DNA from: Tubulanus polymorphus
Taxonomy: Eukaryota; Nemertea; Palaeonemertea; Tubulaniformes; Tubulanidae
DNA: 64,000 nt
Direction: 5' to 3'
NCBI RefSeq assembly: GCF_964204645.1
Contig: NC_134033.1
Coordinates: 3,221,631-3,285,630, forward strand
The notes under the pieces were generated by a model. It had not been told where the DNA came from, did no database searches, and saw nothing but the letters and a program-made list of their open reading frames with translations. Below are positions 12,801 to 24,800 of the stretch, piece by piece; the first letter of the stretch is position 1, and every line of letters starts with the position of its first letter. A program made the translations under genes and the position numbers.

Positions 12801-15800
12801 TTCTAAACCTTGCAACTTCTTAAACGAAAGAAAATGCCTCATATTAGGCCACACAAAGAAATACCCGAGCTTCTCAAGAAAGTCAAATTCCGCCCACGTC
12901 GATAAAAGTCCACAATAAAAATCAAAAAATCAAATGCAGTCTTTAAAAAAAAAATATAAAGATAAAATTTTCATCACTTTCGAGAAAAAAATCTGATGAG
13001 AAACAAGGGTATTTCTTTGTGCGGTCTTATATTTATATATTTCCCTGAACTAAGCATCCTTTAAGCTAAAACCTTTGCGCGAGCGCGGCCGGGCTTCGCT
13101 CGTACTCAATCTAAAACGAGGAACTGCCGTCCGAAAATATCACGCGGAAACGCTTTCAGGAAACGTAGGACGCACGGGTCGACGTGGGAAGGCATTAATT
13201 TAAAGCTAAACTAAAAATAGACCAGGTCGATGATACAGAGCATGAACAGGATTAAGTCAGTTCTTCGACCTTCTACGAATACAGCCTGACAGAAAAATAT
13301 AGAATTTCGATAAATTCTATATTTCGATGTATCAAAAAATTGGAGTTGGCGTTTATTTTTTTTCATAGATTATAAAACTATTCTCGATGCGTTTGTTTAT
13401 TTATCTATAAAATCATTCGCGAATCGATATCGGTAAAGTTTTTTTATAAGCTCCACCCTGTTGTTGTTTATCAAGGAGAAAAACCTGCCAGCACTGAATA
13501 TATGGATCTTTCAAAAAATGTGTTAACTATTACACGCTATACAGTGAAATTGAGCCCACGCAACTGTGGAACTGGGTTCAGAGTCAAATTAAACCTACAC
13601 AACTGTGGAACTGGGTTCAGAGTGAAATTAAATCCACACAACTGTGGAACTGGGTTCAGAGTGAATTAAACCCACACAACTGTGGAACTGGGTTCAGAGT
13701 GAAATTTAACCCACACAACTGTGGAACTGAGTTCAGAGTTAGACTCAAATTAAACCCACACAACTGCGTAACTGGGTTCAGTCAAAGTAAACCCATAAAA
13801 TGGTGGAACCGGGTTCAGAGGCAAACACAACTATGGAACTGGATCTACAGTCATGTCAAATTAAACCCATACAACTGTGGAACTGGATTCAGAATCAAAA
13901 TAAACCCACAATCACACTTGAAAGAAATAGATCTCTCCAAATATGCTAAAACATTTCTAATCAAAATGTTTCCTAGTATTCAATAAGGCTAAAGCAAATG
14001 CGAGAAGGACAGGTGTCAGACGGATTCTTTCTGGGACATTGAGTTAGTCCTGACAAGGACTGTGTTAAAGCGTGTTGAAATTCAACAACACCGCTGCTGC
14101 CATCTGGGGTGAGAGTAGCGCCATCTACATGACGTCTGCATCCGTCTGCTGCTGGAAGCGCCATCTACAGGAGAATATACGCATCATTTCTATGTCGTCT
14201 GCTGCTCAATCGGCGTCTGCGATGTCCGTCTGCTGCTGCTCTGAGGCGTATAAATCTTCTTCGTCCAACTCGATCAGACAAATCTCCCTCAACGCGTCCA
14301 TCTCGGCGGCCTGGCGCTTCGCGTATTCGTAATACAGGCGACGCACGCCCTCTATACGCGACGTCTGCAAACGCCGACTGTACATGAACGCGCGCGCGTT
14401 CGACGACTTGGCGCGCGTGAACTGCACGTCAAGCCGCGCCAAACGCTGGTCGAGCAGCACGACTTTGCGACAGGCGGCGCGGAACTTCTTTTCGATCGCC
14501 ATGAACTTCTCGATCGCGGTCGTCGTCGAAGACATTTCTGGTCGAAGTCCGAGTTTATAGTAATTAAAATAAAGCGTAGTAGCTGTAAAGTCGCTGATGA
14601 CTGAATGAACGGATGATGTTGATCTCGAGTCCTGGCTCTGTATTTATAGCAGGTCTGCACAATACACCTGCTGTGGCTACTGTCAAACATCTGGTCCAAT
14701 CACTGTTCGGATATCAATATGACTATCGACCAATCGCTGACCACGTCTGGAGTGTGCCAGGCATGTGCCAGCACACTGCCATATCCGGGTTATTTCCGCT
14801 GGTAGGTTATTTTCGCCGACACGTAACAAAGGAATAATGCTCGGCCTTGAATATATACACGCAGTTGAATAACTAATTTAGCACACGAGGGGAAGCTTTG
14901 TTCCTCTTGTGGGGGAAACATTGTTTAGGCCGAAGCATTCAAATGCTCCCGATCCATACCTTATGCATAATGTATACAACATTGATCTTTGATGAGTCTT
15001 CTCGGCAAACAATGAATTTCCCCTCGAGTAGTAATTATTAGTTGCGTTTCATTATTCACGAAATCATCCGCAACTAAAATTCCGATTATCAAATCCGATA
15101 CGTTCGCTGTGCATTATTTGAAAGTATAGAGGATATCATCATCAATCGATTCAAGTTTAATGTAATATCTGTATCTATCGGGAGTGTTGAGATTACCAGT
15201 TTGGAATAGAGATAGCCAGCGTACACGCTTAGACATGGAGTATAGATAAATATAGAATTAAAAACCGCCCTAAACAAATTTCAAAAATTAAAATAGAAAC
15301 ACGAACATTTTATGAAAACAAAACACGAAATTAAAAACCTGACGATGGTCTCTGGAAGAGCGCGAAACTTTGCGCCGGTGAAAATGCGAAATTTGCAAAA
15401 ACTGATGATCGGATCTTGGAACAACCGATGCCAGGTCAAACTGAATGTATAAATCAAGTTTCAATCCAATTGATTCCGACTGCAATTTAGAAGGAAAGAA
15501 TTCATCTGATCAATAACTTTATCGCTTATCAATATTCTATTAACTTTTCTTTAAATATAAATATAGGAAAGAGTTTTGACGAATTATTTCTAAATATCTG
15601 GGAGCCTGAGTTACATAGTCATGCGTGCTTGCCCATAGCTAGCCCATTTTACTAAAACTTTTAAATAGGCCCTATTAGATTTATAGCTCATTCCCTCTTT
15701 ACACACGCGGAAACTAGCTCAAGAGATTAACCCCTATCATTTACAACCGAACTAAAAATGCCTGCACATCATATTCATGGTCAGAAAATTTATAACGAAT

Positions 15801-21800: not shown

Positions 21801-24800
21801 GACACCTATTTCCCTCCTAACGACAAAACACCGGTGACCAGTTGCTGAAAAGTTGGCTAGAATTAACCTATTGGATAGTTGACTGAGAGACAATTGAAAT
21901 ATCATTGTTACTATAGTATTTATCCACTTTCGACCACTGAACCCAGCTGTGTATATCCAGTGGTTACACTTTGTGCCACCAAGGAGGTCACCTCCCCGGT
22001 ACCACCAAGAGCTTACGAAAGTCTTACGTTCGATCTAAAAACAGGGATTGTCATTTATTTTGTTCGATAGATTTCGCTTGATTTCGTGAACCGTCCCTTA
22101 CAAACTCAACTGTCGCTTAAAAACCGGCAGGTTTTTGTTTTGTTATAAGCTCTGAAGAGTCGAATTTCAATTGTAATCAAATTATCGTCTATAATTCTAG
22201 ACATGTTTAATGCAAATATCGTATTACATCAATCTAAATATAGCTCACTTATATTTACATAGTGGAATATTTATAAATTAAACTAGATTAGTCATAGAAT
22301 ATGAGGAAATCCTGTGACGCAGCGGTAATAAACATATTGAAAATATTTTGAAACATGAATTTATGAATGAATTGTATATTACGGTTGATAATAACATTGA
22401 GATAATCTGCTCGCGTTTTAAATCCTTCAAGCCTGCTGCGAACATACGGGGCTGTACACGTATCAGTAACCAGTTGAAATGTGCCTCAAATTCATCGGTA
22501 ATGAATGAGGGTAAGACCGGAGCGCTTATCAAGAGTGGTAAGAACCTCAGTAACACCTTTCAATGGGTAAGACCCTCAGTAACACCTATCAATGGGTAAG
22601 ACCCTCAGTAACACGTATCAAGGGGGTAAGACCCTCAGTAACACGTATCAAGGGGGTAAGACCCTCAGTAACACCTATCAATGGGGTAAGACCCTCAGTA
22701 ACACCTTTCCAGGGGTATGACCCTCAGTAACACATATCAAGAGGGATAAGACCCTCAGTAACACATATCAAGAGGGATAAGACCCTCAGTAACACCTATA
22801 AAGGGGCTAAGGGGACAATAGCATTATCTGAATTCCATAAGTTTTTTTCTGATTCTGAGTATAACAGGATTTTTCTTTTGCTAAAATTGTTCTTGATCAG
22901 TATCGGTTGAGGCAGCTGAGATTGAGAGATTTCAAACTGACAACAACTAATTAACACTACTCCACACACATACAGATAACTGTGTCAATAATTTACTTAA
23001 TTAACGAGTTAAGGCTTAATTACAAGCCCCACAGAAACGAGAAGTGATGACTGGTTAATAATTCAATTAGTAATTAATTAACTCCCAGTCAGGTGAGTAG
23101 GTATCATTCCGGGCAGCACCGGCTATATAAACCAGTAGCATACTGACAACAGTCAGTTCAGTTCAGTTGAACAGAGCAGACGCATCGAACGCAGACGCAT
23201 CGAACGCATAGAACACACAGCAGCAGACGCATCGAGCACACAGCAGCAGACGCATCGAACGCTTCAAACCAACCTCTACACGATGGACGAAATACAACAA
23301 ATGGAAACAGCGCCCCCTGCCGGTGACCGCATCGACTACTACATGAGCGTCGTGCACCGCATCGCCGAGCTCGAGTCGAAGTTCGTTGGCGTCGTGCGCG
23401 CGATCGCCGTGCTCGATCGCAAACTTGACCGCGTCGAGACGCAGTTCAAACGCGCGACGCGAGACGACAACAAGTCGTGCCGATTCACGCGGCGTCTGCA
23501 ACTCGCGAGTATCGAGGGCGTGCGACACGTCCATTACATCTACGCGCAGAAGGTCGCGCTCGAGATGGAGCGCATGAACGTGCTGTGCGCCGAGATACAA
23601 CGCGACTCCGTCAGCTTCAACGCGCGCAACTGAGATACCGGCGGCGACACCTGGTGGCGTTGATAGCGGTGACACCTAGAAGGTGTAATCGGTACTAATA
23701 CGCTCGGTCAAACGGTCCTTCTCAGGACCAATCAAACGTCCCAGAAATAGATCATTCATAAAACCGGTCAAAACCCGTATTAAACCCAATATCAATTTTG
23801 ATATTTCTAAAACACTTTTTGAGTTAAAGTTCTCAAACCGTTGACTAAGTATTTGACACAAACTCGGGGTAGAATTTTAGCGGTCTCAACTTAACCGCAG
23901 TAAGAGACAGAGTCTACTGTATTTCACAAACTCTTACTCAGTATTTGACACCAATTCGGGGTAGAATTTTACCGGTCTCAACTTAACCGCAGTAAGAGAC
24001 AGAGTCTACTGTATTTCACAAACTCTTATTCAGTATTTGACACCAACTCGGGGTAGAATTTTACCGGTCTCAACTTTACCGCAGTAAGAGACAAGAGTCT
24101 ACTGTATTTCACAAACTCTTACTCACTATTTGACACAAACTCGGGGTAGAATTTTACCGGTCTCAACTTTACCACAGTAAGAGACAGAGTCTACTGTATT
24201 TCACAAACTCTTACTCAGTATTTGACACCAACTCGGGGTAGAATTTTACCGGTCTCAACTTTACCGCAGTAAGAGACAGAGTCTACTGTATTTCACAAAC
24301 TCTTACTCAGTATTTGACACCAACTCGGGGTAGAATTTACTGCAGTAAGAGACAGAGTCTACTGTATTTCACAAACTCTTACTCAGTATTTGACACCAAC
24401 TCGGGGTAGAATTTACCGCAGTAAGAGACAGAGTCTACTGTATTTCACAAACTCTTACTCAGTATTTGACACCAACTCGGGGTAGAATTTTACCGGTCTC
24501 AACTTTACCGCAGTAAGAGACAGAGTCTACTGTATTTCACAAACTCTTACTCAGTATTTGACACCAACTAGGGGTAGAATTTTACCAATCATTACGTAAA
24601 CTAGGTCGATTCGACTCTCAACTGCGGTTAGAATGAACCAGATATATCCCTGTAGTAATCGTAGGTACGTAACCATATATGGCATTTGAACAATAATAAT
24701 GTTAATCATCATCATTTCAACTCGGATAGGGGTAGAGAGCGGAAGTTGTCAGCCCACATCAGGATCAACAATACACAGCGCGAAGCCCTCATACATATAT

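What the first reader, a model, noticed from the sequence alone, without database searches (positions are those of the whole stretch)
14024..23752. Two non-histone paralogues that both carry histone-type 3' ends
Two intronless genes (109 and 116 residues) in the same kinase intron encode colinear proteins about one third identical over 82 residues. Each is followed by a stem-loop of the histone mRNA class (GGTCCTTCTCAGGACC and AGTCCTTGTCAGGACT), then GTCCCAGAAA at the same distance, where the U7-pairing element sits in histone pre-mRNAs. No AATAAA is seen nearby. In animals SLBP/U7 processing is known almost only for replication-dependent histones. A protein family outside the four core histones and H1 using it would be new: perhaps an S-phase or oocyte chromatin protein. 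Seen: sequences, spacing, paralogy. Inferred: processing and timing.
Basis: partly seen in the sequence, partly recalled or inferred. Interest (0 to 1): 0.92.

Follow-up and report, generated by a model that had tools for sequence, protein, structure and literature searches.

The report
Non-histone genes with histone-type mRNA ends
An animal genome carries a family of small, non-histone protein genes whose ends look just like those of its own histone genes, which suggests that the special tail-less, S-phase type of mRNA thought to be reserved for histones is used more widely.

Summary
Both window genes end in a histone-class stem-loop followed, 8 nt on, by GTCCCAGAAA. Gene B's stem-loop equals (16 of 16) that of the same genome's H3 gene, whose downstream element is CTCCCAGAAAG. 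A model built only from this genome's histone 3' ends finds both (B E 9e-13, A E 1e-10). The genes belong to a family of 25 found here: 15 have stem-loop plus downstream element, 2 keep the element after a degraded stem-loop, 8 have neither. Stems covary, and the informative gene pairs show purifying selection. The protein is a predicted helical hairpin of unknown function, not a histone fold. SLBP is encoded; U7 was not securely found. The same 3' end also follows RING-like genes (10 of 16 near viral-type PolB, read as Maverick/Polinton) and one IS1595-type transposase subfamily. Best explanation: these mRNAs are cleaved by the SLBP/U7 machinery and lack poly(A). No RNA data were available; processing and timing are inferred, and 7 of the 15 genes also have a poly(A)-type hexamer within 400 nt of the stop.

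The parts
14206..14535 (-). gene A, uninterrupted ORF, 109 aa, helical coiled-coil-type protein
   Evidence: 35% identity to B over 81 aa
14046..14061 (-). histone-class stem-loop AGTCCTTGTCAGGACT, 144 nt after the stop of A
   Evidence: (histone-only model hit 14020-14067, 43.2 bits, E 1.1e-10)
14028..14037 (-). histone downstream element (U7-pairing position) GTCCCAGAAA, 8 nt after the stem-loop
   Evidence: same genome's H4 has CTTCCCAGAAAG
14641..14648 (-). TATA box TATAAATA of gene A
   Evidence: the strict pattern TATAWAW was found in none of the 4 own core histone promoters
14696..14734 (-). two CCAAT boxes upstream of gene A (14696-14700 and 14730-14734, read as ATTGG on the minus strand); the own H2A, H2B and H3 promoters also show CCAAT; gene B has none in the 230 nt examined
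23283..23633 (+). gene B, uninterrupted ORF, 116 aa, helical hairpin (AF2 mean pLDDT 85.4)
23714..23729 (+). histone-class stem-loop GGTCCTTCTCAGGACC, 80 nt after the stop of B; identical to the own H3 gene's stem-loop
   Evidence: RF00032 28.1 bits, E 7e-4, below the gathering score 34; 49.7 bits, E 8.8e-13
23738..23747 (+). histone downstream element GTCCCAGAAA, 8 nt after the stem-loop
23124..23130 (+). TATA box TATATAA of gene B
9105..25870 (-). host intron (approximate limits) of a kinase gene (GCKIII, MST3/STK24/25-like: name recalled) that contains both genes
   Evidence: Pkinase matches in the outer exons; motifs of the flanking exons

Best explanation
Genes A and B belong to a multicopy family of small helical-hairpin proteins with uninterrupted reading frames, whose pre-mRNAs are processed like replication-dependent histone pre-mRNAs. 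SLBP binds the stem-loop, U7 snRNP pairs with the CCCAGAAA element, and cleavage a few nucleotides after the stem-loop leaves an mRNA without a poly(A) tail. Such mRNAs should be made, translated and destroyed with S phase, or stored in oocytes, like histone mRNAs. Shown: the sequence elements, their spacing, their match to the own histones, covariation, retention in diverged copies, and an encoded SLBP domain. Inferred: cleavage, absence of poly(A), cell-cycle timing. The protein's task is unknown; my working guess is an oligomerising coiled-coil protein needed in step with DNA replication or in the early embryo.
For: A model built from 8 histone 3' ends of the same genome (H4, H3, H2A, H2B, one H2A variant, three H1-like genes named by eye) finds A at E 1.1e-10 and B at E 8.8e-13; the next best place in the window is 12.4 bits, E 0.66. 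Of the 24 family genes searched there, 15 match at E 2.2e-4 or better, one at E 0.1 and eight not at all; one of the 15 (C4:4.29) has a degraded loop by eye. Across 26 chosen stem-loops (histones, family, RING-like, transposase and two others) 99.4% of pair cells are paired against at most 55% in slid controls; 4 of 6 pairs show changes on both sides (25 of 500 shuffles reach that) and the covariation score exceeds all 500 shuffles. Three comparisons of genes that carry both elements are saturated at synonymous sites (A with C4:23.8m, B with C3:8.1a, C10:0.38 with C4:23.8m). The four pairs with at least 20 synonymous differences have dN/dS 0.13-0.22. An SLBP RNA-binding domain is encoded on C2 in two pieces (46.5 and 35.7 bits, cut-off 27), with KYSRRGWD...WKKKIHMW. 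Uninterrupted ORFs and head-to-head pairs (one on C4, two on C11) resemble the own H2A/H2B pair.
Against: There are no transcripts. U7 snRNA was not securely found: the best RF00066 match is 28 bits (gathering 34) and has AATTTGTCT plus a 3' hairpin but no complement to CCCAGAAA in its 5' part. Eight of 25 family genes lack both elements and 2 have a degraded stem-loop. Of the 15 genes with both elements, 7 have AATAAA or ATTAAA within 400 nt of the stop, B among them, against 2 of the 8 genes without elements, so hexamers do not set the two sets apart in the expected way. The downstream elements of A and B match the histone AGAAAGAGCC less well after AGAAA, and those of C1:21.3, C10:0.38, C4:23.8 and C11 differ from CCCAGAAA by 1 to 3 letters. 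The strict TATAWAW pattern, present before A and B, was absent from the 4 core histone promoters. No second species could be searched.
Confidence: 0.77

Rival explanations
1. The histone-type 3' end in this genome is mainly a trait of mobile elements (RING-like genes of Mavericks, an IS1595/Merlin transposase), and the coiled-coil family is a domesticated or still mobile gene from such an element.
For: Of 48 RF00032 matches in the genome, 16 follow RING-like genes and 5 IS1595 transposase copies. 10 of 16 RING-like places lie within 20 kb of a DNA_pol_B_2 match, against 1.2% of random positions. The family is multicopy with uninterrupted ORFs, and near-identical copies exist on C3 (two) and C8 whose shared block ends about 40-50 nt after the downstream element.
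Against: 0 of 25 family genes lie within 20 kb of a DNA_pol_B_2 match. The upstream ends of the near-identical blocks differ between copies. Target-site duplications and terminal repeats were not systematically tested.
Confidence: 0.2
2. The stem-loop and downstream element work, but only as one of two alternative 3' ends; most mRNA is polyadenylated downstream.
For: ATTAAA 145 nt after B's stop and AATAAA 804 nt after A's stop. 7 of the 15 genes with both elements have a hexamer within 400 nt of the stop, in the three near-identical C3/C8 copies at 83 nt. Some histone H2B genes also make polyadenylated mRNAs (PMC3661734, title and abstract start seen in a listing).
Against: 8 of those 15 genes have no such hexamer within 400 nt, A none within 800 nt.
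Confidence: 0.28
3. Chance hairpins, or decaying relics copied from a histone gene, without function.
For: Eight members have lost or never had the elements and two have degraded ones.
Against: 0.21 such hairpins expected per window and none with a downstream element in 100 simulations. Covariation. Retention in genes saturated against each other at synonymous sites.
Confidence: 0.04

Closest known systems
Replication-dependent histone genes (metazoan SLBP/U7 3' end class)
   Same: Same kind of stem-loop and downstream element at nearly the same spacing as in the own histone array; uninterrupted ORF; head-to-head pairs in three cases; CCAAT boxes before A.
   Different: The protein is not a histone: no Pfam family over its cut-off, two-helix hairpin model, balanced charge in A and B. 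Genes are dispersed, not in the histone array.
RING-like genes of the same genome, read as Maverick/Polinton (adintovirus-like) genes
   Same: Same 3' end, stem-loop plus downstream element, most often with the full AGAAAGAG.
   Different: Different protein; 10 of 16 near DNA_pol_B_2, family genes 0 of 25.
IS1595/Merlin-type transposase subfamily of the same genome (Merlin: name recalled)
   Same: Same 3' end at 5 places, one of them degraded.
   Different: Transposase domain PF12762, E 7e-21 for the one copy scanned. The roughly 700 nt after 7 other copies of the 40 listed had no stem-loop; 28 were not examined.
SLBP targets as published
   Same: Same machinery presumed.
   Different: [quoted passage not shown] PMC11021305 (passages) calls histone mRNAs the only eukaryotic mRNAs that are not polyadenylated.

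Membership tests
histone-type (SLBP/U7) 3' end | 6-bp stem with 4-nt loop, conserved G-C second pair and U-A closing pair, loop UNUN | tested here: met
   A and B both; 26-row covariation
histone-type (SLBP/U7) 3' end | purine-rich downstream element at the position found in the own histones | tested here: met
   GTCCCAGAAA 8 nt after each stem-loop; own histones CCCAGAAAG at nearly the same distance
histone-type (SLBP/U7) 3' end | passes the curated Rfam RF00032 score | tested here: not met
   B 28.1 bits, gathering 34; A not listed up to E 10. The own H3 (27.8) and H2B (30.3-31.7) genes also fall below it, so the Rfam cut-off does not discriminate here
histone-type (SLBP/U7) 3' end | found by a model of the own histone 3' ends | tested here: met
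   E 1.1e-10 and 8.8e-13
histone-type (SLBP/U7) 3' end | base pairing of the downstream element with the own U7 snRNA | tested here: inconclusive
   no secure U7 gene found
histone-type (SLBP/U7) 3' end | SLBP encoded in the genome | tested here: met
histone-type (SLBP/U7) 3' end | no poly(A) signal downstream | tested here: inconclusive
   A none within 800 nt; B an ATTAAA at 145 nt; 7 of 15 genes with both elements have a hexamer within 400 nt
histone-type (SLBP/U7) 3' end | mRNA ends just past the stem-loop without poly(A) | not testable with these tools
   no RNA data
histone proteins | histone fold or linker-histone domain | tested here: not met
   no Pfam family over its cut-off; AF2 model is two long antiparallel helices; no Foldseek match below E 0.07
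Maverick/Polinton gene | lies in an element with a viral-type PolB | tested here: not met
   0 of 25 family genes within 20 kb of a PF03175 match; the polymerase list is a lower bound, 91 of 1341 candidates scored

The most novel reading that the evidence does not exclude
In this animal the tail-less, SLBP-controlled mRNA class is a regulon wider than histones. A host family of helical-hairpin proteins uses it to be made in step with DNA replication, and Maverick/Polinton elements and a Merlin-type transposon carry the same signal so that their own RING-like and transposase mRNAs join the S-phase programme.
Probability: 0.45. Interest if true: 0.93.

Novelty: new variant of a known kind. Interest (0 to 1): 0.86.

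Why it matters
Passages of two papers state that SLBP/U7 processing serves histone mRNAs alone (PMC2781718; PMC11021305). A selected gene family with the full cis-signal in an animal genome, and mobile elements that carry it too, would break that rule. It would make directly testable whether the S-phase mRNA pathway is a general regulatory channel that genes and selfish elements can join, and what a non-histone protein does that must be produced in step with replication.

Tried and rejected
Histone-derived protein: rejected. Known family by sequence: Pfam at E up to 1 listed 25 families for 19 members, each for one or two members, best Cor1 E 0.0088 for one member; PHROGs gave none; NCBIfam gave two erythrose-4-phosphate dehydrogenase models for two members each and a thiamine-pyrophosphate model for one, taken as chance. 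A PDB profile search gave mostly coiled coils, best tropomyosin E 0.011. Foldseek hits (PspA, ESCRT-III, ING4, LSD1) are all above E 0.07 and typical of any helical hairpin, so no function is read from them. Maverick origin of the family: not supported. Relatives in viral contigs: none for gene B by six short peptide patterns, which find close relatives only, and no match to a 21-letter stem-loop pattern. U7: inconclusive. L057 and L058 carry stem-loops beside a tandem repeat of about 100 bp with no ORF; not explained. The Rfam genome search scored only 75 of 42,273 first-look candidates and missed the own H4 and H2A stem-loops, so genome-wide counts are lower bounds.
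Full report
What was checked. The proteins are paralogues: 35% identity over 81 residues, E 3e-19. The two hairpins are the only ones of the strict histone class in the window; 100 simulated windows averaged 0.21, and none had the downstream element. GTCCCAGAAA occurs exactly twice, each time 8 nt after a stem-loop; 4 of 100 shuffles also had two or more copies somewhere. Both genes lie in the intron between kinase exons near 25.9 and 9.1 kb.

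The own histones as the yardstick. The genome of the window is held, 267.8 Mb and unnamed. Its core histones sit in a tandem array on C10. In the one 10-kb unit read, H4, H2A and H2B end in GGTCCTTATCAGGACC and H3 in GGTCCTTCTCAGGACC, each followed by CCCAGAAAGAGCC or CCCAGAAAGGGCC. Gene B has the H3 stem-loop letter for letter. Rfam's general model scores B at 28.1 bits, below its curated 34, but also scores the own H3 at only 27.8 and H2B at 30.3-31.7. A model of eight histone 3' ends of this genome alone (three of them H1-like genes named by eye) finds A at 43.2 bits (E 1.1e-10) and B at 49.7 bits (E 8.8e-13); the best other place in the window is 12.4 bits, E 0.66.

A gene family. Protein searches with B and A each list 24 places, 25 different ones in all. 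Two are doubtful members: C7:16.55 (best E 0.04) and C3:8.1b (E 0.008); both lack the elements. Reading the 3' flanks gives: 15 of 25 with a stem-loop of 6 pairs (one with a G-U pair; 5 of 6 pairs at C10:0.38 and in three near-identical copies on C3 and C8) and a downstream element, which in several copies differs from CCCAGAAA by 1 to 3 letters; 2 of 25 with the element after a degraded stem-loop (C4:4.29 and C5:3.62); 8 of 25 with neither (two of these have a lone similar string more than 1.1 kb away). The 15 fall into nine diverged groups, since C4:23.8 counts two, C11 four and C3/C8 three near-identical copies. A simple hairpin score reached 11.5 in 15 of 24 genes against 6.7% of 4000 control stretches (the controls come from the same loci, so they include some real sites). 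Three head-to-head pairs exist (one on C4, two on C11), as with the own H2A and H2B. That the genes are intronless rests on the uninterrupted reading frames; introns in untranslated parts are not excluded.

Selection and covariation. Over 26 stem-loops chosen from histones, the family, RING-like genes, transposases and two other places, 99.4% of cells pair and the covariation score exceeds all 500 shuffles; four of six pairs show changes on both sides, which 25 of 500 shuffles reach, and the number of further pair types (4) is below the shuffled mean (6.1). The rows were chosen because they look like stem-loops, so the paired percentage is biased upward. In one search, 14 pairs of family genes were compared. 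Four are saturated at synonymous sites. Of the ten with a ratio, eight have dN/dS 0.12-0.25, one has no nonsynonymous change, and one, between two genes without stem-loops (C4:2.897 and C4:2.900), is 0.97. Five of these ten rest on three or fewer synonymous differences; the four with at least 20 give 0.20, 0.13, 0.19 and 0.22. A tree of 24 proteins (with C4:4.29 coded as having a stem-loop and C5:3.62 left out) needs at least 5 changes of stem-loop presence; 9 of 19 inner branches are open, so the number of losses is not settled.

The protein. No Pfam, PHROGs or NCBIfam family fits. AlphaFold on B with A as the only other row gives two long helices, 13-60 and 64-115, mean pLDDT 85.4, pTM 0.70. 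Foldseek has no match under E 0.07 in the PDB or BFVD. It is not a histone fold. Charge is balanced in A and B (19 K+R to 18 D+E; 19 to 17), while predicted pI across the 24 members ranges from 4.7 to 9.9. GC at third positions is 0.79-0.80 in A and B, near the core histones (0.62-0.77), but 0.35-0.60 in the other 22 members. A strict TATAWAW lies within 500 nt upstream in 14 of 24 members and in 0 of 4 core histones.

Other users of the same 3' end. The RF00032 search of the genome lists 48 places (75 of 42,273 candidates scored). Outside the array all 34 flanks were read (and the window): 14 places are in the histone array, 4 follow an H2A variant or H1-like genes (H1 by eye), 16 follow RING-like genes (some broken; Pfam supports three of the four types only weakly and below cut-off, the 90-aa type not at all), 5 an IS1595-type transposase (one search lists all five; C6:11.96 is degraded), 2 an unidentified ORF (MULE-like by eye, no Pfam match), 2 the window family, 2 a tandem repeat, 3 are unassigned. 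10 of the 16 RING-like places lie within 20 kb of a DNA_pol_B_2 match against 1.2% of 20,000 random positions; 0 of 25 family genes, 0 of 5 transposases, 0 of 2 unidentified ORFs and 0 of 5 histone places do. Three RING-like loci were read more widely: one holds a DNA_pol_B_2 polymerase (E 2e-23 and 3e-26), one a weak adenovirus-type protease match (17.2 bits, cut-off 21.3) and a PC4 domain, the third similar fragments by eye. The name Maverick/Polinton is my reading of these. Of 40 IS1595 places, 5 have the stem-loop, 7 others have none in the roughly 700 nt examined, 28 were not examined.

How it most likely works. An SLBP domain is encoded. By established knowledge of the pathway (PMC7614891, passages), SLBP on the stem-loop and U7 snRNP on the downstream element direct cleavage by CPSF73. 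The same signals at the same spacing make this the best-supported fate of the mRNAs of A and B. That step, the missing tail and S-phase timing are inferred. U7 itself was not securely identified.

What is known. Ten paper searches were answered (one search listed 10 of 65 papers). No title or abstract start that they listed speaks of a non-histone gene family, a Polinton or a transposon with a histone-type 3' end; this holds for this open-licence library and these terms only. Passages of PMC2781718 and PMC11021305 state the rule that this would break; passages of PMC2413145 (12 of 13 places) and PMC5087906 do not name a non-histone user.

Verdict. The cis-signal is real and shared with the own histones; the protein family is non-histone and under selection; mobile elements share the signal. 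It is a known mechanism in a new place. The chief gaps are RNA data, a second species and U7.

Noticed in passing
L042-L045, L050-L053, L056, L061-L066 (C1, C3, C5, C7, C8, C12): RING-like genes, 10 of 16 within 20 kb of a viral-type PolB (read as Maverick/Polinton), end in histone stem-loop plus, in nearly all, a downstream element. One paper search for Polinton, histone and stem-loop listed nothing relevant. It may deserve its own study.
   Followed up: partly
L047, L048, L067, L068, L069 (C3, C11, C1, C6): One subfamily of IS1595-type transposase (328 aa in the longest copies) also ends in a histone stem-loop, with a downstream element in four of the five.
   Followed up: partly
L057, L058 (C2:24.21 Mb, C4:26.33 Mb): Two loci, 95.6% identical, carry a perfect stem-loop plus downstream element after a tandem repeat of about 100 bp without any ORF of note.
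   Followed up: no
L019 2003-2150: Family gene on C10:10.95 Mb is followed by three successive histone-type hairpins, only the first with a downstream element.
   Followed up: no
L023 1256-1304 and 2038-2086: A second, inverted copy of the stem-loop end lies upstream of the gene, as if a head-to-head partner had been deleted.
   Followed up: partly
L038 1501-1560 (C2:16587097): U7-like Sm site AATTTGTCT and 3' hairpin without a complement to the downstream element; a possible diverged U7 or chance.
   Followed up: partly
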